This document shows, piece by piece, positions 24,633-41,956 of a stretch of DNA of 64,000 bases; within the stretch, counting starts at the first letter, position 1, and the number at the start of each line of letters is the position of its first letter. A model generated the notes under the pieces. That model was given only the letters and a program-made list of their open reading frames with translations, was not told the origin of the DNA and searched no databases. The position numbers and the translations under genes are program-made. This stretch comes from Rubrivivax sp. (lineage in GTDB: Bacteria > Pseudomonadota > Gammaproteobacteria > Burkholderiales > Burkholderiaceae_C): the NCBI GenBank assembly GCA_027485165.1, contig JAIXRN010000075.1:186001-250000 (forward strand). The letters are read 5' to 3'.

Positions 24633-24637
24633 GCCGC

Positions 24638-27600: not shown

Positions 27601-27670
27601 CGCCGGGCTGACCCTGCTGAGCCAGCCCGGGCGCGGCACCGAGGTGATGGTGTCCTGGGCGCCGGCATGA
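24638..27670 (+). CDS. GAF-rich soluble sensor histidine kinase, NarX-type
   Basis: 1010 residues with no transmembrane segment seen, so probably cytoplasmic. Four GAF-like blocks appear at about 25-205, 245-410, 430-610 and 640-800 (for example ADVAVLIENFESPG, ERAGIAQVHWTPH, SGARTAAVHRVERSG, QSGAWMGHLFRFDED), joined by Ala/Arg/Glu-rich coiled coils. The HisKA_3 dimerisation helix carries the phospho-His in LAREIHDGIAQSFLAIG (about 824). The ATPase domain shows EAVNNVLLHA and LVADDGRGFD. This pairs with NarL-type regulators, which lie immediately on both sides. The ligands of the GAF domains are unknown. Confidence 0.93.
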   Translation: MDVPTRTGAAATHDWFDTPAAPLPDDQLAAARQRAAEAEALSGLLAGVVLATRELLDADDFAAGLNAWLARLGQAAGADVAVLIENFESPGQPTVARWRAMWRRHATAGVVGPIPATSDFIDWQRRLNAGETIWAHIDELRDPASVQFWRDTDCQTNLLVPIVLNGRAPYVLCFDWHLRQAWQPAYGTVLRTAADSLAAVLQRQAAAQALASEREARIEAERRRADEAAAHAARIERHSRLLAAVAESAEELLAARDLCATLGAVLQRIGQVMQAERAGIAQVHWTPHDPALRGWQQVTHEWTRAGRVRQLDSPAARIDMYRDDPTWERMLEQFRTHGRAVLQPEGLGEPCCSARALLGPAWTVCHPVLLDDAIVGVAFFDFPTPFQDSDAAELAALRTVASAMSDAMGRRALEQRTLHAEQQRSAALARVSESLRRTAQHVAEGVSLERVLGAALLEVAGISGARTAAVHRVERSGQVLQLMACVTAGQPLDLATDLRVRAWCQPVPLTRALPWLVRLSNDEFRVQRLAGEDGLSFDPAALEAHRSFGHSHLLQVPLYAGDELVGVMSLCFTADPEPAGLHADHARAVGHLMATALQMAQLSEAARRALLAGERERLQRERAAELARANEMLRSAMAALPGDADGHSFLATALTEIVAQSGAWMGHLFRFDEDSGLMRLVGSSHQGRWSPEGEADDPPHFRSGYRPLEPAMAQLMAKRRVQWVDIADGTRRDFMLPATHAWHQRQNHQAAAFQVLAVGPRLVGLVGMTFRDATPPPEVQLERVHALGQPMALALELARLAQLARRSAEQAAVMGERNRLAREIHDGIAQSFLAIGMQLEAATPPADGATAAAMQQARELAAHGLAEARRAVAALRPYELGKRSLPAALRELLAKRLAGSGLQLALELPPAWQALPPEAEDHLFRIAQEAVNNVLLHAAASTLRVELSQAAGETTLLVADDGRGFDTQSVRDGAFGLEGMRQRTRLLGAGLTLLSQPGRGTEVMVSWAPA

Positions 27671-27699
27671 AGCGCTTGGTCAGCCCCTGAGGAAGCCTG

Positions 27700-28332
27700 T
27701 TGACCCCCGACCTCATCCGCGTGCTGATTGCCGACGACCACCCCATCGTGCGCGGCGGCCTGGCGGGGCTGATCTCAGGCTGCGCCAGGCTGCAACTGGT
27801 GGGCGCGGCGGCGGACGGTGCCGAGGCGATCCGCCGCTACGCCGAACTGCGGCCCGACGTGGTGCTGATGGACCTGCGCATGCCCGGGGTGGACGGCGTG
27901 GCGGCCATCGAGGCCATCCGCGCCCACGACCCGCAGGCGCGGGTGGTGATCCTCACCACCTTCGACGGCGAGGAAGACATCTGGCGCGGCCTGCGCGCCG
28001 GTGCCCGCGGCTATCTGCTGAAGGACTCGCCACCGGCCGACATCCTGGCCGGCATCGAGACCGTCATGCGCGGGCAGCGCTGCCTGCCGGGCCCGGTGGC
28101 GGCCAAGCTGGCGTCGCGCATGGAAGGCGAAGCCCTGTCGCGGCGCGAGACCGAGGTGCTGCGCCACCTGGCCCAGGGCCTGAGCAACAAAGAGATCGCC
28201 CGCGCCACGGGCATCACCGAAGGCACGGTGAAGTTCCACGTCACCGCCGTGATGGCCAAGCTGGGCGCCAAGAGCCGCACCGAGGCCGTGACGCAGGCCG
28301 TGCGGCGCGGGCTGGTGCGGCTGGAAGGCTGA
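27700..28332 (+). CDS. NarL/LuxR-type response regulator 2
   Basis: 210 residues, the standard length: receiver (RVLIADDHPIVRGGLAGLIS, Asp in VVLMDLRMPGVDG, Thr in LTTFDGEED, Lys in GYLLKDS) and a LuxR HTH (LSRRETEVLRHLAQGLSNKE, GTVKFHVTAVMAKL). The start codon is TTG, supported by GAGGAAG seven or eight bases upstream. It is a closer match to the NarL norm than regulator 1 and probably the main output of the preceding kinase. It converges with the MetE-like gene with one base between stop codons. Confidence 0.92.
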   Translation: MTPDLIRVLIADDHPIVRGGLAGLISGCARLQLVGAAADGAEAIRRYAELRPDVVLMDLRMPGVDGVAAIEAIRAHDPQARVVILTTFDGEEDIWRGLRAGARGYLLKDSPPADILAGIETVMRGQRCLPGPVAAKLASRMEGEALSRRETEVLRHLAQGLSNKEIARATGITEGTVKFHVTAVMAKLGAKSRTEAVTQAVRRGLVRLEG

Positions 28333-28333
28333 C

Positions 28334-29470
28334 TCAGGCGCCGGCGTTCACGGCCAGCGCCGCGCCTTCGGCCATCGCAGCCAGCTTGGCGTAGACGATG
28401 TCCTCGTCGACCGCACCGAAGCCGGCGAAGGTGCCAAAGCCGCAATCGCTGCCGGCAATCACGCGGTCGACGCCCACGATGTCGACGAAGCGCTGCAGCC
28501 GCTGCGCGATGAGCTGCGGGTGTTCGATGAAGTTGGTGGTGGTGTCCAGCACGCCGGGGATCAGCAGCTTGTCGTCCGGGATCTGCCGACGCATGTCGCG
28601 CACGGTCGCCCATTCGTGGCCGTGGCGCGGGTTGGCGGTCTCGAACAGCAGGCCCCGGGGCTTGGCCTTCAGCACCGTGGGCAGGATGGTGGCCAGCGGC
28701 ACGTCGCGGTGGTGCGGGCCTTCGTAGTTGCCCCAGCACACGTGCATGCGCACGCGGTCTGCTGGAATCGCCACCAGCGCGTAGTTCAGCGCTTCCACAT
28801 GCTTTTCGATGCGCGCCAGGTAGGCCGGCTCTTCCAGTTCGCGGTACATCATGTGCCGGCCCAGGCCCAGGTCGGGCGAATCGATCTGCAGCATCAGCCC
28901 GGCGTCGACGATGGCGTGGTATTCGTGCCGCAGCGCGTGCGCCAGCGCTTCGAGATAGGCGTCGTCATCGGCGTAATGCTGGTTGGGCTGGAACAGCGCC
29001 ACCACACCGGGGGAGGCCGCGTTCATGAACATCGCACCCGCGCCGTGCCGCTGCGCGGCGGCCTTCAGGTGCGCGATGTCCTTCATCAGGGGCTCGAGCG
29101 TGCGCACCGCGATCGGCCCCACGCAACAGGGCCGGCGGTAGGTGGGCGTGCCGCCGCTGGTGCGCAGCCGTTCGCGGAAGCCGGGGTAGTCCAGCAGGTC
29201 GCCCGGCGTGCGGCGCGGGCTGTCGCCGTCGAAGCCGGTGTAGCGGTCCTTCAGGTAGGTGGCGTAGCTGATCTTGCTCATCTCGCCATCGCTGACGATG
29301 TCCACGCCCGCGGCCACCTGGCGGCGCACGCAGTCGTCGATGGCCGCGGCCATCACGGCATCGAAGGCAGCTTCGTCGACAGCTTCGCCGCGCTCACGCG
29401 CAAAGATCAGGTCGACGACCGGCTGGCTGCGCGGCAGGCTGCCAACGTGGGTGGTGGGCAGGCGCTGCAT
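28334..29470 (-). CDS. MetE C-terminal-like (cobalamin-independent methionine synthase II family) protein
   Basis: 378 residues, corresponding to the catalytic C-terminal half of MetE. The family start is THVGSLPRSQPVVDL. Zinc ligands are present: His and Cys in RVRMHVCWGNYEGPH, a Glu in LLFETANPRHG and Cys in IAGSDCGFGTFAGFG. Half-length members of this family include methyl- or alkyl-transferases that are not methionine synthases, such as epoxyalkane:coenzyme M transferase. It lies 14 bp downstream of the TonB receptor, so both are probably cotranscribed from the LacI-regulated divergent promoter. A role in demethylating or transferring a group from the imported substrate is an inference; ordinary methionine synthesis is less likely in this setting. 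Confidence 0.88.
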   Translation of the reverse strand: MQRLPTTHVGSLPRSQPVVDLIFARERGEAVDEAAFDAVMAAAIDDCVRRQVAAGVDIVSDGEMSKISYATYLKDRYTGFDGDSPRRTPGDLLDYPGFRERLRTSGGTPTYRRPCCVGPIAVRTLEPLMKDIAHLKAAAQRHGAGAMFMNAASPGVVALFQPNQHYADDDAYLEALAHALRHEYHAIVDAGLMLQIDSPDLGLGRHMMYRELEEPAYLARIEKHVEALNYALVAIPADRVRMHVCWGNYEGPHHRDVPLATILPTVLKAKPRGLLFETANPRHGHEWATVRDMRRQIPDDKLLIPGVLDTTTNFIEHPQLIAQRLQRFVDIVGVDRVIAGSDCGFGTFAGFGAVDEDIVYAKLAAMAEGAALAVNAGA

Positions 29471-29484
29471 CGCGTTGCCTGGCC

Positions 29485-32166
29485 TCAGAACGCCGAGTAC
29501 GAAGCGCGCAGGCCGAAGGTGCGCGGCATCGCCCCGCTGACCTGCAGCGCGCCACCGCCGCCCCAGACGAAGCGGTTAATGGTCTGCTTGTCGGTGAAGT
29601 TGTCGACGTAGGCCTGCAGCGCGAAGCTTTCGTTGACCTTCCAGTTGAGCTTGAAGTCGGCCTTCGCATAGGCGCCCTGCTTTTCGAGGCTGGCGTTGCT
29701 GGGTTGGCCGAAGAAGCCGCTGCTGTAGTTCACCGCCAGCAGCGGGGTCAGCACGCCCAGGGTGCCCAACGGGATGTCGACCTTGGCAAACACCGAGACC
29801 TGGCTTTCCGGGCTGTAGGGCAGCTTGTTGCCGGTCAGGTCGCAGCCGAAGGCTGCCGCTGGCTGGCCAGTGCCGCCTGTACCGGGCACCACGCCGCAGC
29901 GGTAGCCGGGCGCAAACAGGCGCCGCTGGCCAGCGGGCGCCAGGACCACGCCATTGGCATCGACCTGCGCGGCGGTGGAAGCCGGATCGGCCACCAGGAT
30001 CGACGTGCCGAAGGGCAGGGCCACGTCGGGGAAGCTGGTGTACTTCGCATCCAGCAGCGTCAGCGTGCCGCCCAGGGTCAGGGCCTTGGTGGCGCGCCAC
30101 TCGGTTTCGAGCTCGAAGCCGTTGGCCTTGGCTTTGGCGGCGTTGAAGATCGTGGAGATCGTCGTCGCGCCGACGGCAATCTGGCGCTGTTCCTGCAGGT
30201 TGGTGTAGCGGTTGGTGTACAGCGCCGCATTGACCTGCAGCTTGTTGTCGAGGAAGCGGTTCTTCGAACCCAGCTCCAGCGCCGTGACTTCCTCGGGTTT
30301 GAAGGTGCGCACCGCGGCCAGCGCCTGGCCCGAGTTGAACCCGCCCGAACGGAAGCCCGTGGACACCGATGCAAACACCAGCTGCGAAGCCGAGAGCTTG
30401 TAGTCCACCGCCAGCCGGCCGGTGGTCTTGCTGAAAGTGGCGTCGTCGTAGGTGGCGCCGGTGACGGTGTTGGTGCCCGGCAGGCAGTTGAAGCCCGGCT
30501 GCGCATTCGACCCGGTGCAGTTGGTGGCGCCCTGCGTACCGAAAGCAGCAGCACCGGGCCGCGCCGTGTCCAGCGTGATCAGGGTGCCGTCTGGCGCGCC
30601 CAGCACCAGCGGCAACACGCTGTTGGCATTGGCGAACTTGAAGGACTTCTTGTCGCGCGTGTGCCGCAGGCCCACCGTGACGGTCAAGGCATCGGTCGCG
30701 CGGAAACTCAGCTGGCCGTACAGGGCGGTGGACTGGGTTTCGGGCTGCTGCAGGTCGTAGAAACCGGCGCCGTTCTGCGGCAGCGTGAGCGCTGTCGATG
30801 TCGCCGTGGACCGGATCGTGCGCGGCAGCTGCTGGTTGATGAACAGGCCCGTGAGTTCATCCTTGAACAGGTAGACCCCGGCGACATAGCCCAGCGGGCC
30901 GCTGCCTTCGGACAGCACCTGGAATTCCTGCGTCAGCGTCTTGGCGGATGTCCGCTGGTAGTCGATGCCGATGGTGGAAGCCGAGAAATCGGTGTCCGAC
31001 GAACGGGCGGCGTCGAAATCTGCATAGCCCGTGATCGACTTCAGGGTCAGGCCCGGCAGGCGCCAGCTGATGTCGGCCGACAGGTTGCGGTCCTCCAAAT
31101 CCAGGAAGGACCGGTAGTCGTTGTTGATGCGGTCCAGTTGCCCCGGCTTGTGCAGCGGGATGCCCAGGTCCACGCTGGTACCGGTGGCATTGGCGCCGGT
31201 ACCTGCGCCTGCACCCACGGTGCGTGTGCAGTCGTTGACGCCGTCGCGGTTGCCGCCCCGCGAATTGATCGCGGTGACGGTGGCGTTGAAGAGCTGCTGG
31301 CACGAAGGGGTGTGTAAGAAGGTGCCCGCCAGCTTGTAGCCGAAGGCCGAGCCCCCATTGCCCTTCTGCTGGGTGGTGTCTGCGCGCAGCACCACGTCGA
31401 TGTCGCGCGTGGGCTTCAGGGCCAGGCTGGCACGCAGGTAGCGCAAGTCCTGGTCGAAGAGACCAGCCGCGGGGTTGAAGTCGTTCTTCACCCAGGGGTC
31501 AGCCTTTTCCACCGCGCCGGCAAAGCGCAGCGCAGCCTGGTCGCCCAGGGGCACGTTCACGGCGCCGTCGAAGCGCTTCTTGCCGAAGCTGCCCAGCGTC
31601 AGGTTGGCAGATGCTTCGCGGCTGCCGATTTCGGGCGCGTTGGTGGTGACGACGATGTTGCCGCCAAAGGTATTGCGGCCGAAGAGCGTGCCTTGCGGCC
31701 CGCGCTGGATCTCCACGCGGCTGACGTCGACGAAGCCCAGCATGGCCTGTTGCGCGCGGCTCTTGTAGATGCCATCGACGAAGAAGCCGATCGTGGTGTC
31801 GGCGTTCACGGCCACGTTCTCGGTGCGCACGCCGCGGATCGCCGGCCGGGCGTCGACACCCGACTTGCCGAAGGTAAAGCCAGGCACCAGCCCTTCGATG
31901 CTGGACAGGTCCAGCACGTTGCGCTCGGCCAGCCGTTCCGCCGGCAGGGCGGTGACGGTGACGGCCACCTTCTGCTGGTCTTCGATGCGGCGGTTGGCCG
32001 TGACCGTGACCGTGATGAGCTGGCCGCTGTCGGCTGCGGCTGCGCCTGTTCCGGCGGACGCTGGGCTGGCCTGCGCCCATGCCGTCGATACACCCGCTGC
32101 CGCGGCCCAGACCGCACACACCCACGCGATCTCGCGCACCACGAACCGCTGCTGACCGTGAACCAT
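29485..32166 (-). CDS. TonB-dependent outer-membrane receptor
   Basis: 893 residues. A signal peptide ends near STAWAQA. The plug domain shows QKVAVTVTALPAERLAERNV, the FGKSGVDARPAIRG part, VDGIYKSRAQQAMLGFVDV and VEIQRGPQGTLFGRNTFGG. The remainder is a 22-strand barrel with typical TonB-receptor endings (GLRHTRDKKSF, NAALYTNRYTNLQEQ, VGLR-type end LRASYSAF with terminal Phe). It resembles the large sphingomonad-like catabolic receptors rather than siderophore receptors. It is divergent from a SnoaL-like gene across a promoter containing a LacI-type operator, suggesting inducible uptake of the substrate of the adjacent ABC importer. The ATG at 32166 gives a normal signal; upstream in-frame codons do not. 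Confidence 0.95.
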   Translation of the reverse strand: MVHGQQRFVVREIAWVCAVWAAAAGVSTAWAQASPASAGTGAAAADSGQLITVTVTANRRIEDQQKVAVTVTALPAERLAERNVLDLSSIEGLVPGFTFGKSGVDARPAIRGVRTENVAVNADTTIGFFVDGIYKSRAQQAMLGFVDVSRVEIQRGPQGTLFGRNTFGGNIVVTTNAPEIGSREASANLTLGSFGKKRFDGAVNVPLGDQAALRFAGAVEKADPWVKNDFNPAAGLFDQDLRYLRASLALKPTRDIDVVLRADTTQQKGNGGSAFGYKLAGTFLHTPSCQQLFNATVTAINSRGGNRDGVNDCTRTVGAGAGTGANATGTSVDLGIPLHKPGQLDRINNDYRSFLDLEDRNLSADISWRLPGLTLKSITGYADFDAARSSDTDFSASTIGIDYQRTSAKTLTQEFQVLSEGSGPLGYVAGVYLFKDELTGLFINQQLPRTIRSTATSTALTLPQNGAGFYDLQQPETQSTALYGQLSFRATDALTVTVGLRHTRDKKSFKFANANSVLPLVLGAPDGTLITLDTARPGAAAFGTQGATNCTGSNAQPGFNCLPGTNTVTGATYDDATFSKTTGRLAVDYKLSASQLVFASVSTGFRSGGFNSGQALAAVRTFKPEEVTALELGSKNRFLDNKLQVNAALYTNRYTNLQEQRQIAVGATTISTIFNAAKAKANGFELETEWRATKALTLGGTLTLLDAKYTSFPDVALPFGTSILVADPASTAAQVDANGVVLAPAGQRRLFAPGYRCGVVPGTGGTGQPAAAFGCDLTGNKLPYSPESQVSVFAKVDIPLGTLGVLTPLLAVNYSSGFFGQPSNASLEKQGAYAKADFKLNWKVNESFALQAYVDNFTDKQTINRFVWGGGGALQVSGAMPRTFGLRASYSAF

Positions 32167-32259
32167 GCCGTCGCTCCGAGTTGTGGCGGGCGCATGGCCG
32201 CACCCCATGCGCGGCACTGCCCGTCGACGGCCTGCAGTGTGCATGCCGATTCCGCGGCT

Positions 32260-32273
32260 TGCAAGCGTATGCA
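32260..32273. promoter_or_regulatory. Putative LacI operator in the TonB/SnoaL divergent promoter
   Basis: TGCAAGCGTATGCA matches 12 of 14 positions of the perfect palindrome found upstream of the lacI gene. It lies 66 bp before the SnoaL start and 94 bp before the TonB receptor start, so one site could control both directions. Binding is inferred from repetition and position. Confidence 0.65.
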
Positions 32274-32338
32274 TTACGATTTCCCATCCGCTGGTGAAAA
32301 CCCCGAGCAGCCCGGCCCAGCATCATTGAGAGCGCACC

Positions 32339-33517
32339 ATGAGCATCCCACCCCCTGCTGCCACACCCCAGATGCCCGCTTCGGCCCAGCCGTCCCCGCG
32401 GGTCTCTGGCGACGGCGGGGCACCGCCCATCGCGCCCCCCCAGCCCCGGCCCGACCCGGCCTTGCTGGCGCGGTGCAAGGCCGATGTGTGGCGTCTGCTG
32501 CAGGCCACACCCGGCCCCGACACGGCGGCCGCGCTGCACGCCGCCCTGGCGCCCGATGCCCAGTGGCACGTAGCGCACCCTTTCAACAACCTGCAGGGTG
32601 CCCAGGCCATCCATCAGCGGCTCTGGGCACCGCTGCAGCGCGCACTGCCGGACCTGGAACGGCGCACCGACCTCTTCCTGGCGGGGCACTGGGCGAGCCC
32701 ACCTGAAGGCTTCGTCGGCCATTCGCCGGCCGCGGTGCGCGGCGAAGGCTGGTGGGCCAGTGCCCACGGGCATTACGTCGGCACGTTCAAGCAGCCTTGG
32801 CTGGGCATCCCGCCCACGGGCGAGCCCGTCGCGCTGCGCTTTGGCGAGTTCTACCGCTGGGAACCTGCAGATGAGCCCGGGCGCGATGGTCAGCAGGGCC
32901 GCGGCCGCATCACCGAAGCCCGCGTGTTGCTGGACGTGGTGGACCTGGCCCGCCAGGCCGGGCGCCCCCTGCTGCCGCCCAGCCGCGGCCTGGACTGGCT
33001 GGTGCCGGGCCCAGGCCCGCATGACGGGCTGCTGCTGGACGCTGTGGACCCGGCGGCCGGCGAACGCAGCATGCACCTGGTGCTGTCGATGATCGCCGGG
33101 CTGTTCGCCTTCGACGGCAAGAACCTCGACTCGATGGGCATGCCACGCTTCTGGCACCCCCAGATGATGTGGTACGGGCCGGGTGGCATCGGCACCGCGC
33201 GGGGCGTCAGCGGCTTCCAGCGCCATCACCAGGCGCCTTTCCTGCACGCCTTCCCGGACCGGCGCGGCAACGGCCACCGCGCCCGCGTGGCCGAAGGGCC
33301 GTATGTCGCGTCCACCGGCTGGCCCAGCGTGGTGGCCACGCACGCGGGCGACTACCTGGGCGTGCCCGCCACGGGCCGGCGCATCGGCATGCGCGTGATG
33401 GACTGGTGGCGCCACGACGGCCAGCTGCTGACCGAGAACTGGGTGCTCATCGACCTGCCGCACCTGATGTTGCAGATGGACGTGGACCTGCTGGCGCCGC
33501 TGCAGGCCGACGCCTGA
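32339..33517 (+). CDS. SnoaL/NTF2-like ester-cyclase-family protein 1
   Basis: 392 residues without a signal peptide, so cytoplasmic. After a Pro-rich N-terminal 40 residues it shows two consecutive SnoaL-like (NTF2 fold) halves: residues about 45-210 (WRLLQATPGPDTAAALHAAL, WHVAHPFNNLQGAQAIHQRL, ALRFGEFYRW) and 235-390 (RFWHPQMMWYGPGGIGTARG, FQRHHQAPFLHAFPD, GMRVMDWWRHDGQLLTENWV). SnoaL relatives catalyse aldol cyclisation, isomerisation or hydrolysis; this subgroup has no known reaction. It lies between the divergent TonB receptor and the lacI operon and carries a LacI-type operator upstream. A conserved Asp/His arrangement is visible, but the active site cannot be named. Confidence 0.75.
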   Translation: MSIPPPAATPQMPASAQPSPRVSGDGGAPPIAPPQPRPDPALLARCKADVWRLLQATPGPDTAAALHAALAPDAQWHVAHPFNNLQGAQAIHQRLWAPLQRALPDLERRTDLFLAGHWASPPEGFVGHSPAAVRGEGWWASAHGHYVGTFKQPWLGIPPTGEPVALRFGEFYRWEPADEPGRDGQQGRGRITEARVLLDVVDLARQAGRPLLPPSRGLDWLVPGPGPHDGLLLDAVDPAAGERSMHLVLSMIAGLFAFDGKNLDSMGMPRFWHPQMMWYGPGGIGTARGVSGFQRHHQAPFLHAFPDRRGNGHRARVAEGPYVASTGWPSVVATHAGDYLGVPATGRRIGMRVMDWWRHDGQLLTENWVLIDLPHLMLQMDVDLLAPLQADA

Positions 33518-33542
33518 GCAGACGGGTGTTTTCCCGGTCTGC
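33518..33542 (+). terminator. Hairpin immediately after the SnoaL gene
   Basis: GCAGACGGG and CCCGGTCTGC form a stem with one bulged base around a TGTTTT loop, starting at the base after the stop codon. There is no T-run afterwards, so it may be a weak terminator or an mRNA 3'-end stabiliser. Confidence 0.4.
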
Positions 33543-33597
33543 CAACGCAAGCCGGTGGGCTTGACGGCGGTGCTGGTCTCGTTCAGCATGAGCGGTG

Positions 33598-33611
33598 TGC
33601 ATACGTATGCA
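33598..33611. promoter_or_regulatory. Perfect 14-bp palindrome upstream of lacI (putative LacI operator)
   Basis: TGCATACGTATGCA is a perfect palindrome with a central CG, the symmetry typical of LacI/GalR-family operators. It is 122 bp before the lacI start and recurs in degenerate form in the TonB/SnoaL promoter. This suggests autoregulation of the lacI-ABC operon and coordinated control of the divergent genes. Confidence 0.72.
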
Positions 33612-33733
33612 GCCTCAAAAGGATGCGCCGCAAAATCCTATGACCTGCTTCCTTGAACACGGCCAGAGCATGACGAGCCAGATCGCCGCCAGCCCGCGAT
33701 GACGGCGATGACCTTGATCAGGCCGCACGGCAA

Positions 33734-34831
33734 ATGGACAGCGTCATGATGGCAACCCTGTCGCACCCGAACCGCCCTGCGCCGCCGCGCCCGGGCCCCG
33801 CCATGGCCAAGTCCACCGTGACCTCGATCGATGTAGCCCGTCTCGCCGAGGTCTCGCAGTCCGCCGTCAGCCGCACTTTCACGCCCGGCGCCAGCGTCGC
33901 CCCGGATACGCGCGCCCGCGTGCTGGAAGCCGCGCGCAAGCTGGGCTACCGGCCCAACGCCATCGCGCGCACGCTGAGCACGCGGCGCTCGCGCATGATC
34001 GCGCTGGTGATGTCCAACCTGCAGAACCAGTTCTATCCGCTGGTGGTGGAGCAGCTCTCGCAGCGCCTGCAGAAGGACGGCTACCACGTGCTGCTGTTCA
34101 TCACCGAGAACGAGGACGCCGACGAGCTGCTGGTGGAGCTGATGCGCTACCAGGTCGACGGTATCGTGATGGCGTCGACCCAGCTGTCTTCGGGCCTGGC
34201 ACAGGAGATCGCCGATGCGCGCATCCCCGTGGTGATGTTCAACCGCAGCACCCGGGCCGGGCGCGTCAGCACCGTCAGCAGCGACAACCACGGCGGCGGC
34301 CGGGCGGTGGCGCAGTTCCTGGCCGCGGGCGGCCACCAGCGCGTGGCCTACCTGGCCGGCGCCGAGGACACGTCCACCAACCAGGACCGCGAACGCGGCC
34401 TGCGCGACGGCCTGGCCGAACACGGCCTGCGCGTGGTGGCGCGTGCCGTGGGCCACTACGACTTCGAACGCGCGCGCCAGGCCACGCACGAACTCTTCGG
34501 CCCGCTGGTGGCGCCCAGCGAACGGCCCGACGCGCTGTTCGTGGCCAGCGACCACATGGCCTTCGCGGCGATGGACGTGCTGCGGCTGGAACTGGGCCTG
34601 CGCGTGCCCGAAGACGTCTCGGTGGTGGGCTATGACGACGTGCCGCAGGCGGCCTGGGGCTCGTACGCGCTGACGACCGTGGCACAGGACGCCACTTTGA
34701 TGATCGAGGCCACCGTCGGCACTCTGCTGCAGCAGCTGGAAGACGATGCCGTGTCGCGCGGACAGGTGCTGGTGCCGGCAACGCTGGTGGTGCGGCAGTC
34801 GGCACGGCGGCCGGCAGAGGACACACCATGA
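33734..34831 (+). CDS. LacI/GalR-family transcriptional regulator
   Basis: Up to 365 residues. The DNA-binding helix-turn-helix is VTSIDVARLAEVSQSAVSR followed by ARVLEAARKLGYRPNAIAR, including the minor-groove hinge helix. The periplasmic-binding-protein-like sensor domain follows (RMIALVMSNLQNQFYP, YQVDGIVMASTQLSS, AYLAGAEDTSTNQDRERG, PDALFVASDHMAFAAMDVLR, VSVVGYDDVPQA). ATGs at 33746, 33749 and 33803 are alternatives; the last fits LacI norms but has no better ribosome site. The stop overlaps the next start (ATGA). It probably represses both the ABC operon and the divergent TonB/SnoaL promoter until an unknown inducer binds. Confidence 0.94.
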   Translation: MDSVMMATLSHPNRPAPPRPGPAMAKSTVTSIDVARLAEVSQSAVSRTFTPGASVAPDTRARVLEAARKLGYRPNAIARTLSTRRSRMIALVMSNLQNQFYPLVVEQLSQRLQKDGYHVLLFITENEDADELLVELMRYQVDGIVMASTQLSSGLAQEIADARIPVVMFNRSTRAGRVSTVSSDNHGGGRAVAQFLAAGGHQRVAYLAGAEDTSTNQDRERGLRDGLAEHGLRVVARAVGHYDFERARQATHELFGPLVAPSERPDALFVASDHMAFAAMDVLRLELGLRVPEDVSVVGYDDVPQAAWGSYALTTVAQDATLMIEATVGTLLQQLEDDAVSRGQVLVPATLVVRQSARRPAEDTP

Positions 34832-35778
34832 AAGGCTTCGATCCCGCCTTCACCGACCTGGACGACTACATCCGCGTCATCACCGCGCGCATCTGGGAAG
34901 GCCGCGAGATCGACCGCATCCACGACTGGTACGCACCCGACTGCGCCGTCATCACGCCCGGCGGCACGCAACAGGGCGTGGACGCGGTGGTGCGCGGCAC
35001 GCTGGAAACGCTGCAGCAGTTCCCGGACCGGCGGCTGCTGTGCGAAGACATCGTCAGCGCGGGCGACGACGAGGCGGGCTATCTCTCATCGCACCGCATC
35101 GCGTCGACCATGACCCACCGCGGCGACGGCGCCTTCGGCCTGGCCAGCGGCCAGCGCGTGCGGGTGCGCACCGTGGCCGACTGCGTGTGCCGGGGCAACC
35201 GCATCGTGCACGAATGGCTGGTGCGCGACCAGGGTGCAATGGCGCTGCAGCTGGGCCGCAGCCCGCGTGGCCTGGCGCAAGCCTGGATGGCCACCCGCGG
35301 CGCCCCCACGCTGCCTCTGCATCAACCCCCGGCCCCCGGCGGCTGGCAGAACCCGCAGCACACCACGCCAGGCGCGGCTTTGCTGGCCGCCACCTACCGC
35401 GCGCTCTGGGCCGGCGACCTGGCCGTGCTGGCCCGCCACTGCGACGAAGCGCTGGACCTGCACGGCCCCAGTGGATTCACCGGCATGGGCCTGGCCGATG
35501 CCGAAGGCCTGTGGTTCGGCCTGACGGCAGCTTTTGCGGGCGCCACGCTGCACATCGACAGCCTGGCTGAACGCATCGACCCCGGGCGCACGCCGCGCGT
35601 GGCCATGCGCTGGCGCATCACGGGCCAGCACGTGGGCGGCGGGCGCTATGGCGCGGCCACGCAGCGGCCGGTGGAGATCCTGGGTATCACGCACGCCGAG
35701 GTGGACCACGCGCGCGGCCGCATCCTGCGCGAATGGCTGCTCATCGACGAGGTGGCGCTGTGGATGCAATTGCTGTGA
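34828..35778 (+). CDS. SnoaL/NTF2-like tandem-domain protein 2
   Basis: 316 residues, cytoplasmic. Two NTF2/SnoaL halves: about 1-135 (ITARIWEGREIDRIHDWYAP, YLSSHRIASTMTHRG, RTVADCVCRGNRIVHEW) and 165-316 (TYRALWAGDLAVLARHCD, DLHGPSGFTGMGLADAEGLW, VAMRWRITGQHVGGGRYG, ILREWLLIDEVALWMQLL). The repeated R-I-x-x-EW endings are usual for this superfamily. It is translationally coupled to lacI and followed by the ABC ATPase after 31 bp. Together with the other SnoaL-like protein it is probably catalytic in the pathway, but no reaction can be assigned. Confidence 0.75.
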   Translation: MKGFDPAFTDLDDYIRVITARIWEGREIDRIHDWYAPDCAVITPGGTQQGVDAVVRGTLETLQQFPDRRLLCEDIVSAGDDEAGYLSSHRIASTMTHRGDGAFGLASGQRVRVRTVADCVCRGNRIVHEWLVRDQGAMALQLGRSPRGLAQAWMATRGAPTLPLHQPPAPGGWQNPQHTTPGAALLAATYRALWAGDLAVLARHCDEALDLHGPSGFTGMGLADAEGLWFGLTAAFAGATLHIDSLAERIDPGRTPRVAMRWRITGQHVGGGRYGAATQRPVEILGITHAEVDHARGRILREWLLIDEVALWMQLL

Positions 35779-35809
35779 GCCCGCAGGCCCACCCGCACGA
35801 GAGGGCACG

Positions 35810-36882
<1,073 letters not shown>

Positions 36883-36886
<4 letters not shown>

Positions 36887-38193
36887 CCGCCGGCCTGCGC
36901 CGCCGCCCGCTGCTGGCCGCCGCCGCGCTGGCCACAGGCCTGGGCCCTGGCCTTGGCCTGTCTGCAGCGCGGGCACAGGCTGCCGCCTGTCCACCGGTGG
37001 CTGGCAGCGGCACCGTCAACATCGTCGGCAACAGCTTCCCGGCCCTGCAGCACATGGCGCGTATCGCCGAAAGCTGCGCCCGCCCGGGGCTGAAGGTGGT
37101 GTTCAAGCTCACGCCGCAGGCGCGCACCGAAACCGAGCAGGCCTTCGCATCGGCCGGGCGTTCGCCCTTCGATGCCGCAGCGGTGTCGATGGGTGTGTTC
37201 GCCAACCTCTACGCGCGGCGCGAACTGCAGCCGCTGGACGACCTGGTGCAGCGCCATGGCACGCGCGGGCAGCTGGAAGAACGCATGCTGGTGCGCATGG
37301 ACGGGCAGGTGATGGCGTTGGCCTTCCTGCAGAACACGCAGTGCCTGTTCTACCGCGCCGACCTGTTCGAACGCCACGGCCTGGCTGTGCCCACCACCTA
37401 CCCGCAGATGCTGCAGGCCGCAGCGGTATTGAAGGCACGCGAGCCCGGCATCGACTACCCCATCGCCCAAGGCTTTGCCAAGGGCTTTGACAGCGCGGTC
37501 GAGTTCATCAACCTGCTGGTGGCGCACGGCGGCCGGGTGTTCGAGCCTGGCAGCGCACAGCCCGCGTTCCATGGCGCCGCTGGCCAGGCCGCGGTGGCCA
37601 CGATGCGCGCGATGCTGCCCTTCATGACGCCCAATGCGCTGGCATCGAACGCCGACGACGTGGTCAACCAGTTCCAGCAGGGCAAGGCGGCAATGGGTGT
37701 GCTCTGGGCCAGCCGCGCCACCAGGCTGGACGACCCGCTGGCATCGCGCGTGGCGGGCCGCATGCAGCAGGCGCTGGCGCCCGCCGCGCGCCCGGGCGGC
37801 GCGCCGGCCGCGCATCTGTGGTGGGACGCGATGGTGCTGCCGCGCAATGCGCCGCAGCAGCGCGATGCCGCCTTTCAGGTGCTGATGGCAGCGCTGTCCC
37901 CAGACACCGTGCGCAGCGGCAACGACCTGGGCGTGTGGGTGCGCTCGACCTGGCGGCCGGGGCGCTTTGGCGACGGTGTCGCGCAGGCCCGTGCCGCCGG
38001 CGCGCCGGTGTGGCCGGGCGAGCCCTTCTTCTCCCTGGCCATTGGTGAGATCGGCAAGGTGTTGCCCGACGCCCTGGCCGGCGGGCGTGACAGCGCCGCC
38101 GTGCTGGCCAACGCCGCGGCCACCTACCGACAGGTGGCCACCGAGAAGGGCTTCCTGCCCGGCCGCCACGCGACCCGCGGCGGTGCGGCATGA
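36883..38193 (+). CDS. ABC transporter substrate-binding protein (CUT1 type)
   Basis: 436 residues. The signal peptide has an RRRPLLAAAALA n-region and is cleaved after ARAQA. The mature protein has type-1 sugar-binding features: MDGQVMALAFLQNTQCLFYR, LFERHGLAVPTTYPQMLQAA, AVEFINLLVAHGGRVFEPG, VVNQFQQGKAAMGVLWASR and a late FQVLMAALSPDTVRSG. It is thus a periplasmic receptor of family ExtBP-1. The ligand is not predictable. It is joined by 4-bp ATGA overlaps to the ATPase before and the first permease after, showing tight stoichiometric coupling. Confidence 0.93.
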
Positions 38194-39200
38194 AGCTGCG
38201 CAGCTTCACCGGCTTCGTCGCGCCTTCGGTGCTGCTGATGGCCCTGCTGCTGGCCCTGCCGCTGGCGCTGACGCTGTGGCTGTCGGTGCACAACTGCACG
38301 CTGCAGATGGAGCTGGTGACGGTGCAGCAGACCGGCCCCTTCGGCGCCCACCCGGTGACGACGCTGCGCGCCCGCACCGCGGCCGACGGCCAGGCGCTGC
38401 AGACCTGCAGCTTTGTGGGCGCCGACTACTACCGCGCCATCCTGGGGTTGGATGCAGGGGGCGACACCCGTGCGGGCCCATCCGCTGTGTCCGCTGTGCC
38501 CGCTGCCCCCGCCGCGCCAGTGGAATTCCTCGCCGCGCTGCGCTTCACGCTGCTCTACATCGCCGGCACCACGCCCTTCGTGCTGGGCGGCGGGCTGGCG
38601 CTGGCACTGGCCATGAACCAGGTCACGCAGCGGCTGAAGGGTGCCTTCATCGCCGCTTCGCTGCTGCCCTTCATCATCACGCCGGTGGTGGGTGCGCTGG
38701 CCATCAAATGGCTGTTCCGCGACGCCGGCCTGGTGCCGCACCTGCTGTCGCAGGTGGGCGTGCAGGTGTACTGGATGGCACAGCCCTGGTCGGCACAGCT
38801 GCTGGTGGTGCTGTACGGCATCTGGCACGTGCTGCCCTTTGCCTTCATCGTCTTCTATGCTGGGCTGCAGGGCGTGCCGCAGGACGCGCTGGAGGCCGCC
38901 ACGCTGGACGGCGCCAGCCGCTGGCAGAAGCTTCGCTACGTCACGCTGCCGCACCTGATGCCGCTGGTGGTGTTCGTCACGCTGATCCACCTGATGGACG
39001 CCTACCGCGTGTTCGAGCCCGTGGTGGTGCTCACACAGGGCGCCTTCACCACCAGCGTGCAATACCTCACCTACCACGTGCTGCTGCAGGAAGCCAACCC
39101 GTATAAGGCCAGCGCCGCCGCGGTGCTGACGGTGGCCGGCATCGCCGTGCTGCTGGTGCCGCTGCTGCGCAAGACCTGGAAGGAGCAACGCGGTGGCTGA
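38190..39200 (+). CDS. ABC transporter permease, MalF/UgpA-like
   Basis: 336 residues with an N-terminal membrane helix (VLLMALLLALPLALTLWLSV), a long periplasmic loop (about residues 28-125, with Ala/Pro-rich part) and five further helices. The cytoplasmic EAA loop for ATPase docking is DALEAATLDGASRWQKLRYV. It lies in the inner membrane with the second permease. The loop is longer than in many CUT1 permeases and contains two Cys. It overlaps both neighbours. Confidence 0.92.
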   Translation: MKLRSFTGFVAPSVLLMALLLALPLALTLWLSVHNCTLQMELVTVQQTGPFGAHPVTTLRARTAADGQALQTCSFVGADYYRAILGLDAGGDTRAGPSAVSAVPAAPAAPVEFLAALRFTLLYIAGTTPFVLGGGLALALAMNQVTQRLKGAFIAASLLPFIITPVVGALAIKWLFRDAGLVPHLLSQVGVQVYWMAQPWSAQLLVVLYGIWHVLPFAFIVFYAGLQGVPQDALEAATLDGASRWQKLRYVTLPHLMPLVVFVTLIHLMDAYRVFEPVVVLTQGAFTTSVQYLTYHVLLQEANPYKASAAAVLTVAGIAVLLVPLLRKTWKEQRGG

Positions 39201-40032
39201 GGCACGGCGCCGCAACCGACTCGGCCCCTGGCTGCTGTATGGCGGCCTGGCGCTGTGGCTGCTGCTGGCCAGCCTGCCGGTGGTCTGGACGCTGGTGATC
39301 TCGCTGCGCAGCTATGTCGATGCGTTCTCGTCGCCGCTGAAGTGGTGGGCCCCGATCACGCTGGAAAACTACCGCGGCCTGTGGGTGGACCGCGAATTCC
39401 ACCGCAACTTCGTCAACACCGCCGTCGTCACGGCCTGCACGGTGACAGTCTCGCTCACCGTGGGCTGCCTGGCGGGCTATGCCCTCGCGCGGTATCGCGG
39501 CTCGCTCGGCTTCTGGCTGCTGATCATCGCGCTGGTGTTCCGCGCGCTGCCGCATTCCACCCTGCTGCCCAGCTTCCACCTGATGTTCGACGCCTTGGGC
39601 ATCCGCAACACCACCTTCACGCTGGTGTTCGTGCTGGTGGCCATCAACCAACCGTTCACGATCTGGATGCTGCGCTCGTTCTTCGCCGGCATCCCGCAGG
39701 AACTGGACGAAGCCGCGATGGTGGACGGCTGCACGCGGCTGCAGGCCTTTCGCCGCGTCATCATCCCGGTGATGTGGCCGGGCGTGGTCACCACGGGCTT
39801 GTTCAGCTTCCTGCTGGCGTACAACGACTTCCTGTTGTCATCGGCACTGACGAATGCCGAACGCATGACCATGCCGGCGGCGATCGCCGGCGCCATCACC
39901 GCCGAAAGCGATGCCTTGCTGATGCAGGGCGTGGCGGGTGCCGTCAGCATCACGATCCCGCTGATCGTGCTGGTGGTGTTGTTCCAGAAGCAGATCGTTT
40001 CCGGCCTGACGCAAGGCGCTGTCAAGGGCTGA
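39193..40032 (+). CDS. ABC transporter permease, MalG/UgpE-like
   Basis: 279 residues, six predicted helices beginning LLYGGLALWLLLASLPVVWT. The EAA loop is ELDEAAMVDGCTRLQAFRRV. The start is a GTG that overlaps the first permease by 8 bp; the alternative would truncate the first helix. With the upstream genes it completes a four-gene CUT1 importer. The C-terminus QKQIVSGLTQGAVKG is the usual MalG-type tail that contacts the ATPase. Confidence 0.93.
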   Translation: MAEARRRNRLGPWLLYGGLALWLLLASLPVVWTLVISLRSYVDAFSSPLKWWAPITLENYRGLWVDREFHRNFVNTAVVTACTVTVSLTVGCLAGYALARYRGSLGFWLLIIALVFRALPHSTLLPSFHLMFDALGIRNTTFTLVFVLVAINQPFTIWMLRSFFAGIPQELDEAAMVDGCTRLQAFRRVIIPVMWPGVVTTGLFSFLLAYNDFLLSSALTNAERMTMPAAIAGAITAESDALLMQGVAGAVSITIPLIVLVVLFQKQIVSGLTQGAVKG

Positions 40033-40049
40033 ACATTGAGCGCGAACCC

Positions 40050-41177
40050 ATGATCCTGACCCCGCAAGAACTCCAGCGCCGGCACATCCGCCGCGCGCAG
40101 TACGTTTCGTGCGAAGACGCCTTCATCGACGTGCGCCTACCGGGCAGCACGCCGAAGGAAAACTATTCCATCATCGGCCCGGGCGTGACGCAGAACCCGG
40201 GCCAGGTGGTGAACCTGCGCGAACCGCATGGCTTCAACATCGGTGCGGCCGGGCTGCTGCCGGGCGTCACCAACAACCTGCACCTGCACTTCACGGCCGA
40301 GGTCTTCATCGCCTGCGAAGGCCGCTTCACGCTGCGCTGGGGCGTGCGCGGCGAAGAAGGCGAAGCCGTGCTGGACGAAGGCGACGTGATCTGCATGCCG
40401 CCGTGGATGTTCCGCGGATTCACCAGCAGCGGCACGCGCAAGGGCTTCCTGATGACGGTGCTGGGCGGGGACGACACCGGCGGCATCCTCTGGAGCCCCG
40501 ATGTCATGCGCCGCGCGCGCGAGACCGGCCTGTACCTGGGCCGCGATAACCAGATCATCGACGTGCCCGCGGGCGCCGCGCCGCCGCCCGAGAGCGAACT
40601 GCTGCCCCTGTTGCCCGACGCCGAAGTGGCGCAGCTGCGCCGATGGTCCGCAAGCGATCTGATGGCCCGCGCGCTGAAGCCCGCGCAACGCGACTACCGC
40701 GCCGCGACGCTGGACACCGCCCTGCCCGGCCACGCCTGGCAGCTGGCGCCCTTCGTCGGCTGGGGGCTGACGCAGCACCGCGACCACCGACCGGCGGTAG
40801 CCGAACCGCAAGGCTTCTCGATTGAATGGCTACGCGTGCCACCAGGCCAGGCCAGTGCGCCCTTCGCCCTGGATGAACCGGCCGTGCTGGTCCACGCCCA
40901 GGGCCCGCTGGCGGTGGACTTCAACGACGGCCCGGCGGCCTTGCGTGCCGAGCTGGGCGCCTGGGACACGCTGTCCCTGCCCGCCGGCTGTACGCGCCGC
41001 TTCGTCAACACCGGCACGCAGGACGCGCACGCGCTGCTGGTGGTGCGTGGCGACGCGCCCAAACCCCCGCGTTTTGCACCGGCCCTGGCGGCCCAGGCGC
41101 TGGCGCGCGACTGCACGCTGGACGCCGGCGGCCACCTGGCCCGGCACAGCCTGCTGCCGCCGCCCATGGCGGCTTGA
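40050..41177 (+). CDS. Bicupin protein of the LacI-regulated cluster
   Basis: 375 residues, cytoplasmic. Two cupin barrels: residues about 55-150, with the first metal motif in NNLHLHFTAEVFIACEGRF (HxH and Glu), and about 255-345 (LDEPAVLVHAQGPL, LGAWDTLSLPAGCTRRF), a second barrel lacking the full His set. The second conserved motif of barrel one reads GDVICMPPWMFRGF, where the usual late His is Arg or missing. Bicupins include dioxygenases, isomerases and decarboxylases; with only part of the metal site the activity is open. It follows the permeases by 17 bp and precedes the aldolase, so it is probably a catabolic enzyme or a binding protein of the same substrate. Confidence 0.75.
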   Translation: MILTPQELQRRHIRRAQYVSCEDAFIDVRLPGSTPKENYSIIGPGVTQNPGQVVNLREPHGFNIGAAGLLPGVTNNLHLHFTAEVFIACEGRFTLRWGVRGEEGEAVLDEGDVICMPPWMFRGFTSSGTRKGFLMTVLGGDDTGGILWSPDVMRRARETGLYLGRDNQIIDVPAGAAPPPESELLPLLPDAEVAQLRRWSASDLMARALKPAQRDYRAATLDTALPGHAWQLAPFVGWGLTQHRDHRPAVAEPQGFSIEWLRVPPGQASAPFALDEPAVLVHAQGPLAVDFNDGPAALRAELGAWDTLSLPAGCTRRFVNTGTQDAHALLVVRGDAPKPPRFAPALAAQALARDCTLDAGGHLARHSLLPPPMAA

Positions 41178-41188
41178 AAGGAACCCCC

Positions 41189-41956
41189 ATGAAAGCCAAC
41201 CGTCTGCTCGAACTTTTCGCCACGGGCAAGGGCGCCGTCGCTGGATGGATGAGCATCGATTCGGCCTATGCGGCCGAACTGGTGGGCTGCGCCGGCTTCG
41301 ATGCCGTGGTTGTCGACTGCCAGCACGGCATGGCCGGCCACGCGCAAATGCTGGCGATGCTGCAGGCCCTGACCCACACCCCGGCCGTGCCCCTGGTGCG
41401 CGTGAGTGGCAACCAGCTGGCCGAGATCAACCGCGCGCTGGACGCGGGCGCCTACGGCGTGATCTGCCCGCTGGTGAACAGTGCCGCCGAGGCGCGCGCT
41501 TTCGGTCGCGCCTGCCGCTACCCACTGGCCGGTGCCGAAGGCGACCGCAGCTTCGGCCCCGCGCGCGGGCTGCTGGTGGGCGGGCCCGACTATGCCGAAC
41601 ACGCCAATGCCCAGGTGCTGGCGCTGGCGATGATCGAGACGCGCGCCGCGCTGGACGCGCTGGACGCCATCGCGGCCGAACCCACGATCGACGGCCTGTT
41701 CATCGGCCCCAGCGACCTGGGCATCGCCCTGGGCCTGGGCCCGGCGGCAGCCTTCACCCACCCCGACCTGGCAGCGGCCATCGCGCGTATCCAGGCCGCG
41801 GCGGCAGCGCACGGGAAAGTCTGCGGCATCTGGTGCGGCAGCGCCGAGATGGCGCGCGCGATGCTGCAGCAAGGCCTGCAACTGGTGGTGCCCGGGCACG
41901 ACGCCCTGTGGCTGAAGGCCGAAATCGCGCGGCGGCTGGAAGCCATACGCCGCTGA
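41189..41956 (+). CDS. HpcH/HpaI-family class II aldolase
   Basis: 255 residues. Family landmarks: GWMSIDSAYAAELVG, the catalytic His in VVVDCQHGMAGHAQML, a conserved Arg in LVRVSGN, metal ligands Glu in LAMIETRAALD and Asp in LFIGPSDLGIALG. Members cleave 4-hydroxy-2-oxo acids to pyruvate plus an aldehyde using divalent metal. The Glu next to the catalytic His in HpaI is Gln here (DCQHG), as in some sub-branches. AAAGGAA precedes the ATG, which is better than the in-frame TTG five codons earlier. It is the last gene of the LacI operon and points to a pathway ending in a 2-keto-3-deoxy type acid. Confidence 0.92.
   Translation: MKANRLLELFATGKGAVAGWMSIDSAYAAELVGCAGFDAVVVDCQHGMAGHAQMLAMLQALTHTPAVPLVRVSGNQLAEINRALDAGAYGVICPLVNSAAEARAFGRACRYPLAGAEGDRSFGPARGLLVGGPDYAEHANAQVLALAMIETRAALDALDAIAAEPTIDGLFIGPSDLGIALGLGPAAAFTHPDLAAAIARIQAAAAAHGKVCGIWCGSAEMARAMLQQGLQLVVPGHDALWLKAEIARRLEAIRR

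What the first reader, a model, noticed from the sequence alone, without database searches (positions are those of the whole stretch)
28334..41956. Uncharacterised LacI-controlled uptake and catabolic cluster
TonB receptor, MetE-like protein, two tandem SnoaL-like proteins, LacI regulator, CUT1 ABC importer, bicupin and HpcH/HpaI aldolase lie together, with tight overlaps and shared operator sequences. All steps from outer membrane to a pyruvate-yielding aldolase seem to be present, but the substrate is not a classic sugar. No dehydrogenase or kinase is present, so the chemistry may run through SnoaL and cupin enzymes. This is the best candidate for a new pathway here.
Basis: partly seen in the sequence, partly recalled or inferred. 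Interest (0 to 1): 0.82.

Follow-up and report, generated by a model that had tools for sequence, protein, structure and literature searches.

The report
Conserved LacI-controlled uptake and breakdown cluster
This is a real, probably co-regulated set of genes for importing and breaking down a still unknown sugar-like compound; related sets, many with the same control sequence, occur in soil, plant and sea bacteria, and this genome carries a slimmed-down version that lacks three enzymes.

Summary
The cluster is real and more than chance. Eleven intact genes at 28334-41956 form two divergent arms: MetE-like + TonB receptor, and tandem-NTF2 (SnoaL) A, LacI, SnoaL B, CUT1 ABC importer, bicupin, HpcH/HpaI aldolase. 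The SnoaL genes are not adjacent; lacI lies between them. An exact palindrome, TGCATACGTATGCA, occurs once in the 4.6 Mb genome, before lacI; one of the two next-best copies lies in the divergent promoter. The motif recurs before homologous genes in part of the related loci, in Proteobacteria and Actinobacteria, and before two stand-alone metE-like genes. Most relatives add three enzymes that this genome lacks: a HisD-like dehydrogenase, an SDR and an alpha/beta hydrolase, so 'all steps present' fails. Those HisD proteins lack the histidine that defines sulfopropanediol dehydrogenase in 90 of 90, so they look like a separate subfamily. The aldolase keeps the tested catalytic residues of the crystallised hydroxyketoacid aldolase SwHKA (40% identical), which itself sits in a homologous operon, so hydroxypyruvate as well as pyruvate is a likely product. 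The substrate is unknown; sugar-acid-like is my best guess. My searches of open-licence papers found no description of this pathway. Uncharacterised, widespread and testable.

The parts
28334..29470 (-). MetE-like zinc enzyme (core domain only, 378 aa)
   Evidence: Pfam Meth_synt_2 3e-14; H243, C245, C343 invariant in 15 of 15 aligned; the 8 orthologues of 63% identity or more that were looked at lie in the same cluster
29485..32274 (-). TonB-dependent receptor; likely start near 32166
   Evidence: Pfam plug and barrel; 53-81% identical receptors beside the cluster in L026, L027, L164 and L165
32260..32273 (.). Operator copy in the divergent TonB / SnoaL-A promoter, 2 mismatches
   Evidence: sites in the same divergent gap in L164 and L165, and before TonB in L027 and probably L026
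32339..33517 (+). SnoaL-A, two NTF2-like stretches (392 aa)
   Evidence: Pfam SnoaL, 2 stretches; alignment A4
33598..33611 (.). Exact palindromic operator TGCATACGTATGCA before lacI
   Evidence: unique at 0 mismatches in the genome
33734..34831 (+). LacI-family regulator
   Evidence: Pfam LacI HTH and Peripla_BP_3; 60-82% identical regulators in L022, L025-L027 and L044-L047
34828..35778 (+). SnoaL-B, two NTF2-like domains (316 aa)
   Evidence: Pfam; model mean pLDDT 93.7 with two alpha+beta domains; nearest folds are NTF2 cyclases and epoxide hydrolases
35810..36886 (+). ABC ATPase (MalK/UgpC type) of CUT1 importer
   Evidence: Pfam ABC_tran, TOBE_2, OB_MalK; 66-78% identical in L025, L044, L047
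36883..38193 (+). Extracellular solute-binding protein
   Evidence: Pfam SBP_bac_1 and SBP_bac_8
38190..39200 (+). ABC permease 1
   Evidence: Pfam BPD_transp_1
39193..40032 (+). ABC permease 2
   Evidence: Pfam BPD_transp_1; 79-90% identical in L025, L044, L047, L048
40050..41177 (+). Bicupin (375 aa), probable isomerase or tautomerase
   Evidence: Cupin_2; H78, H80, E84 invariant in 33 of 33; bicupin fold, model mean pLDDT 94.9
41189..41956 (+). HpcH/HpaI class II aldolase, hydroxyketoacid-aldolase-like
   Evidence: Pfam; nearest PDB SwHKA series, 40% identity; catalytic E, D, H, R kept, Trp at the F210 place

Best explanation
A LacI-repressed regulon that imports and breaks down one small oxidised sugar-like compound (acid, lactone or cyclitol type). 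Shown by sequence: gene order, intact ORFs, recurring operator, recurring company. Inferred: the TonB receptor carries the compound across the outer membrane; the binding protein and CUT1 importer take it into the cell; it or a derivative frees LacI from the two operators; the MetE-like zinc enzyme, the two tandem-NTF2 proteins and the bicupin turn it into a 4-hydroxy-2-oxo acid; the class II aldolase cleaves that to pyruvate or hydroxypyruvate plus an aldehyde. In relatives a HisD-like alcohol dehydrogenase, an SDR and an alpha/beta hydrolase add oxidation and hydrolysis steps; the window's lineage lost that module and so either takes up an already oxidised form or uses general dehydrogenases. 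The compound itself is not identified.
For: Co-occurrence: in 32 hand-picked loci (about one per genus label) of the 80 fetched, HpcH 31, hydrolase 28, LacI 27, SnoaL 25, SDR 21, HisD 20, against 1, 0, 0, 0, 2, 0 of 20 arbitrary 20-kb stretches. Reciprocal test from the MetE-like protein: all 8 loci of 63% identity or more among the 20 looked at carry the cluster, as does L027 at 79%. Operator: 27 sites at <=2 mismatches in 21 loci against 0.8 expected; 48 sites at <=1 mismatch in 105 loci against 0 in shuffles, 39 of them within 450 bases upstream of a cluster gene, in 33 loci (two hits are repeats of the same DNA, L044/L164 and L047/L165). Two MetE-like genes outside the cluster have the exact operator about 40-50 bases upstream (L172, L175). 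Aldolase residues E145, D171, H44, R69 kept in 71 of 71.
Against: 72 of the 105 loci have no site at <=1 mismatch near a cluster gene; nine loci with LacI (L022, L046, L166-L171, L018) have none even at <=2, although LacI of L022 and L046 is 75-82% identical. No sigma-70-like promoter was found around either operator. HisD, SDR and the hydrolase, common elsewhere, were not found here, so the route may be broken. MetE-like and TonB genes are in a minority of loci (8 and 12 of 98). At the F210 place of the aldolase, relatives L024, L025 and L027 have Leu. No expression or ligand data.
Confidence: 0.62

Rival explanations
1. A decaying remnant: the lineage lost the oxidation and hydrolysis module and the rest is on its way out or serves only uptake.
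For: The 21-kb locus L044, the nearest gene order, has a broken SDR relic where relatives have HisD and SDR, and no HisD or hydrolase match; no close HisD, SDR or hydrolase was found in this genome.
Against: All eleven ORFs in the window are intact; the best operator in the genome is kept exactly; no relic of the lost genes was found in the window, so the loss is clean.
Confidence: 0.15
2. A tetronate or other acid-sugar pathway: the aldolase and cupin feed known OtnI, OtnK and OtnC enzymes that make dihydroxyacetone phosphate.
For: otnK and otnC stand in 14 and 13 of 98 loci, never together with the SDR in 59 long loci (0 of 7), as if they replace it; otnK of L008 and otnI of L009 pass their NCBIfam cut-offs.
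Against: No otnK or otnC match within 22-48 kb of the window (the rest of the genome was not searched for them); 0 of 43 loci with the SDR have otnK.
Confidence: 0.15
3. Sulfonate (DHPS-like) breakdown, because the relatives' HisD is closest to sulfopropanediol dehydrogenase HpsN.
For: HpsN (8v35) is the best PDB match of the HisD in L010 and L047, 398 and 393 bits, above true HisD at 261 and 252; the Asp-Lys pair is kept in 89 of 90.
Against: The HpsN signature His126 (PMC11382572) is Leu, Met or Ile in 90 of 90; no gene named as a sulfo-lyase appears in the 14 plasmid neighbourhoods that carry annotation.
Confidence: 0.03
4. Two unrelated arms that happen to be neighbours.
For: Divergent strands; TonB and MetE are missing from most of the 98 loci.
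Against: MetE, TonB and the other genes are joined in L027, L164, L165 and L167-L171, in more than one gene order; operators stand before both arms.
Confidence: 0.03

Closest known systems
SwHKA, hydroxyketoacid aldolase of Sphingomonas (Rhizorhabdus) wittichii RW1, PDB 6R62
   Same: Same family; metal ligands and H44, R69 kept; identical to Swit_5035, which stands directly before a homologue of the window's bicupin
   Different: 40% identity to the window enzyme over 241 residues; Trp in place of F210; the words physiological, natural substrate, pathway and metabolic do not occur in that paper's text
Sulfopropanediol 3-dehydrogenase HpsN (DHPS pathway)
   Same: Nearest solved relative of the HisD-like enzyme found in related clusters
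   Different: The signature His126 is missing in 90 of 90; no such gene found in the window's genome
OtnI, OtnK, OtnC erythronate/threonate pathway
   Same: Some related clusters carry these genes next to the cupin and aldolase
   Different: Not in the window's cluster
MetE, cobalamin-independent methionine synthase
   Same: Core domain and His-x-Cys plus Cys motif (that these are the MetE zinc ligands is recalled)
   Different: 378 aa, no N-terminal domain; best NCBIfam score 88.7 against a cut-off of 406

Membership tests
Hydroxyketoacid aldolase (SwHKA type) | Metal ligands E145, D171 and active-site H44, R69 | tested here: met
   71 of 71 cluster aldolases, window included (residues from passages of PMC10099721)
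Hydroxyketoacid aldolase (SwHKA type) | Aromatic residue at F210 in place of the conserved Leu | tested here: met
   Window has Trp; over 71 rows: Phe 33, Ile 15, gap 10, Leu 7, Trp 6, so it is not general in the cluster
Hydroxyketoacid aldolase (SwHKA type) | Activity with hydroxypyruvate | not testable with these tools
   needs enzyme assay
GarL / HpaI equivalogs | NCBIfam cut-off | tested here: not met
   151.2 of 393 and 147.5 of 406.75 (2-dehydro-3-deoxyglucarate aldolase), 146.6 of 368.8 bits (HpaI)
Methionine synthase MetE | NCBIfam equivalog cut-off and N-terminal domain | tested here: not met
   88.7 of 406 bits; 378 aa
Methionine synthase MetE | Zinc-ligand pattern His-x-Cys and distal Cys | tested here: met
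   H243, C245, C343 in 15 of 15; identity of the ligands recalled
HpsN sulfopropanediol dehydrogenase (HisD-like of relatives) | G-R-Y-A/S-H motif with His126 | tested here: not met
   fifth residue Leu 80, Met 6, Ile 4 of 90 (motif from PMC11382572)
LacI-family repressor | LacI HTH, sugar-binding domain and palindromic operator at the promoter | tested here: met
   DNA binding itself not tested
SnoaL polyketide cyclase | NTF2 fold | tested here: met
   (fold modelled for SnoaL-B only)
SnoaL polyketide cyclase | Cyclase activity | not testable with these tools
   two domains per protein, catabolic setting; function open
OtnK/OtnC tetronate pathway | otnK and otnC in the cluster | tested here: not met
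   no match in the window between 22 and 48 kb

The most novel reading that the evidence does not exclude
An undescribed, widespread catabolic pathway in which tandem-NTF2 proteins, a three-ligand bicupin and, in some lineages, a MetE-like zinc enzyme convert an oxidised sugar-like or cyclitol compound to a dihydroxy-oxo acid that a hydroxyketoacid aldolase cleaves; it would give SwHKA its natural role and define a third subfamily of HisD-like dehydrogenases, and the window's bacterium runs a version that needs none of those dehydrogenases.
Probability: 0.35. Interest if true: 0.72.

Novelty: new variant of a known kind. Interest (0 to 1): 0.52.

Why it matters
The kind (LacI-controlled importer plus catabolic enzymes) is known, but this enzyme set matches no pathway found in the papers searched. 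It would give a natural context to the biocatalyst SwHKA and show what tandem NTF2 proteins and MetE-like enzymes do in catabolism.

Tried and rejected
Considered and rejected: chance neighbours; sulfonate pathway; classic methionine synthesis. Led nowhere: paper searches on the gene set (no paper; one unrelated) and on mycosporines as substrate (53 papers, 12 listed, none relevant by title and abstract start). I raised that compound class only because a methyl ether, a CH2OH on a tertiary carbinol and a diketone ring would fit MetE-like, HisD and hydrolase; no evidence, under 5%. A search for further recurrent genes near the cupin returned mostly shadow ORFs, plus transporters and LysR regulators. 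Fold searches gave only superfamilies: NTF2; bicupins such as oxalate decarboxylase, quercetinase and vicilin. PMC4052901 (LacI regulons; passages only): the words SnoaL, histidinol, cupin and aldolase do not occur in its main text; it reports 54 LacI groups with unspecified sugar pathways, so this regulon might be among them. Operator scan of 9 loci without good sites found none convincing.

My own error: the ABC ATPase reference used (35806-36886) was out of frame; the right start is 35810. ABC counts of those calls are void and are not used. Redone with the right frame: ATPase match in 41 of 98 loci, 30 of them at 50% identity or more; 12 of 32 picked loci (11 at 50% or more) against 6 of 20 control stretches (0 at 50% or more). 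Neither change moved my odds.

Full report
What is there. The window lies in a 4.63 Mb, 103-contig genome. The closest cupin relatives in named records are labelled Rhizobacter, Roseateles, Rhodoferax and Rubrivivax, three of the four being MAGs. Between 28334 and 41956 there are eleven intact genes. Minus strand: MetE-like (28334-29470) and TonB receptor (29485-32274). Plus strand: SnoaL-A (32339-33517), LacI (33734-34831), SnoaL-B (34828-35778), ABC ATPase (35810-36886), binding protein (36883-38193), two permeases (38190-39200, 39193-40032), bicupin (40050-41177) and HpcH/HpaI aldolase (41189-41956). The genes outside look ordinary: response regulators and a GAF histidine kinase before it, a cation ATPase after it.

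Operator. TGCATACGTATGCA is exact once in the genome, at 33598-33611, before lacI. Two sites have 2 mismatches: 32260-32273 in the divergent promoter and 43543 inside the ATPase gene. At 3 mismatches the pattern is hardly commoner than its backward control (31 against 26 in all), so only the best sites count. In relatives the motif recurs. In 21 loci of Proteobacteria there are 27 sites at <=2 mismatches against 0.8 expected from dinucleotide shuffles (5 per locus). In 105 loci (1.94 Mb) there are 48 sites at <=1 mismatch against 0 in codon-block shuffles (3 per locus), 39 of them within 450 bases upstream of a cluster gene and not inside one, in 33 loci. Two of these hits repeat the same DNA (L044/L164, L047/L165), and L022 repeats part of L045; many loci are kin, so they are not independent. 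Eight Actinobacteria loci have it 39-58 bases before the cupin gene (L067, L068, L075, L086, L093, L096, L100, L104) and seven have it between HisD and LacI (L087, L106, L111, L116, L118, L119, L121). Against this, the other 72 of the 105 loci have no such site at <=1 mismatch, and nine loci with a LacI gene (L022, L046, L166-L171, L018) have none at <=2.

Company in other genomes. Annotating those 80 plus 18 further loci (98 in all, window included) against a reference set gave HpcH 79, hydrolase 77, LacI 76, HisD 60, SDR 59, permease 2 58, otnK 14, TonB 12, MetE 8. The reference set includes genes from some of the loci themselves. I then picked by hand 32 of the 80 loci, about one per genus label (Rubrivivax twice), and compared them with 20 arbitrary 20-kb stretches from ten genomes of the window's order: HpcH 31 against 1, hydrolase 28 against 0, LacI 27 against 0, SnoaL 25 against 0, SDR 21 against 2, HisD 20 against 0, permease 20 against 2, TonB 5 against 0, MetE 0 against 0. 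The controls come from one order, whereas the cases span several classes. In the 59 of 80 loci of at least 15 kb, 41 have both HisD and SDR, and SDR and otnK never meet (0 of 7 otnK loci; p = 3e-5 without correction for kinship).

Reciprocal test from the other arm. The MetE-like protein has matches in 16 of 300 genomes of the order at E <= 1e-60, own included. I fetched 20 loci. All 8 of 63% identity or more (L164-L171) carry the cluster. Of 6 at 56-59%, two (L172, L175) have the exact operator about 40-50 bases upstream but no cluster gene seen near, two (L173, L176) lie near otn genes (L173 also near a 29% cupin and an importer), two (L174, L177) have nothing. Of 6 at 51% or less none has the cluster (single SDR or amidase matches only). 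So this MetE-like branch belongs to the regulon. In L027, TonB and MetE (70% and 79% identical) directly follow HisD, SDR, LacI, SnoaL-B, hydrolase, cupin and HpcH on one strand.

What the window lacks. L047 (Rubrivivax MAG) has the window's order plus HisD and SDR between SnoaL-A and lacI and a hydrolase between cupin and aldolase. The window has none of the three and no relic that tblastn could see. L044 (Rhizobacter MAG) has much the window's order with a broken SDR relic. In the whole genome, 93% complete, the best HisD is 35% identical (presumably the biosynthetic one; not checked), the best SDR 46% and the best hydrolase 29%. The window is thus a reduced form.

Chemistry clues. (a) Aldolase: nearest solved structures are the SwHKA series (40% identity). 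SwHKA is identical to Swit_5035, which stands between a hydrolase and a cupin homologue in L012. Passages of PMC10099721 name E145, D171, H44, R69 and the aromatic F210 that contacts hydroxypyruvate. The first four are kept in 71 of 71 cluster aldolases. At F210 the window and five loci (L022, L044-L047; L022 and L045 are one genome) have Trp; the others Phe 33, Ile 15, Leu 7 (with L024, L025 and L027 among them), gap 10. A structure of the F210W variant of SwHKA soaked with hydroxypyruvate was solved. So hydroxypyruvate is as likely a product as pyruvate; this is inference. (b) HisD-like of relatives: closest to HpsN in the PDB, but the HpsN-defining His126 (PMC11382572, passages and section 2.8) is Leu, Met or Ile in 90 of 90; the E-H pair is kept in 90 and the D-K pair in 89 (a few rows are the same DNA twice). 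(c) Bicupin: H78, H80 and E84 invariant in 33 of 33; the usual fourth His of cupins (recalled) is not seen in the conserved P-x-W-x-F-R-G-F stretch; fold of bicupins. (d) SnoaL-B: two NTF2 domains, model mean pLDDT 93.7; nearest folds are polyether epoxide hydrolases and polyketide cyclases at 12-24% identity. (e) MetE-like: metal motif kept, N-terminal domain absent.

Mechanism and limits. The best reading is a LacI-repressed uptake and breakdown regulon for an oxidised sugar-like compound, ending in a class II retro-aldol step. Uptake, repression and the aldol step follow from well-known families; the SnoaL, cupin and MetE-like steps are guesses at reaction type only. The substrate is not identified. 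TRAP, MFS and CUT1 transporters in different clusters suggest a small, perhaps acidic, compound.

Novelty. Paper searches for the gene set found nothing relevant (open-licence papers only). The large LacI regulon study (PMC4052901, passages) leaves 54 groups with unspecified sugar pathways, and its supplement was not read, so the regulon may already be listed there without a function. Kind: new variant of a known kind.

Noticed in passing
L012:8617-12017 (CP000701.1, Rhizorhabdus wittichii RW1): The biocatalyst SwHKA (PDB 6R62) is the aldolase of an SDR - hydrolase - aldolase - cupin operon homologous to this cluster, flanked by IS4 transposases.
   Followed up: yes
L172:1506 and L175:10442: MetE-like genes with no cluster gene seen near carry the exact operator just upstream, pointing to scattered regulon members in those genomes.
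   Followed up: partly
L044:3481-3683: Relic of an SDR gene with a stop inside, between a SnoaL gene and lacI, in a Rhizobacter MAG: a snapshot of module loss.
   Followed up: partly
relatives of the cluster, e.g. L047:1610-2926: HisD-like dehydrogenases with motif G-[KR]-[YF]-P-[LMI] form a group distinct from both histidinol and sulfopropanediol dehydrogenases; many loci carry two paralogues.
   Followed up: yes
L095 (Primorskyibacter flagellatus): Two versions of the cluster side by side: cupin with otnK/otnC, and SnoaL-RraA-hydrolase-MetE-cupin-SnoaL-LacI; RraA stands where the aldolase would be in the second.
   Followed up: no
window 23901-28332: GAF-domain histidine kinase flanked by two LuxR-type response regulators directly upstream; no sign that it belongs to the regulon.
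   Followed up: no
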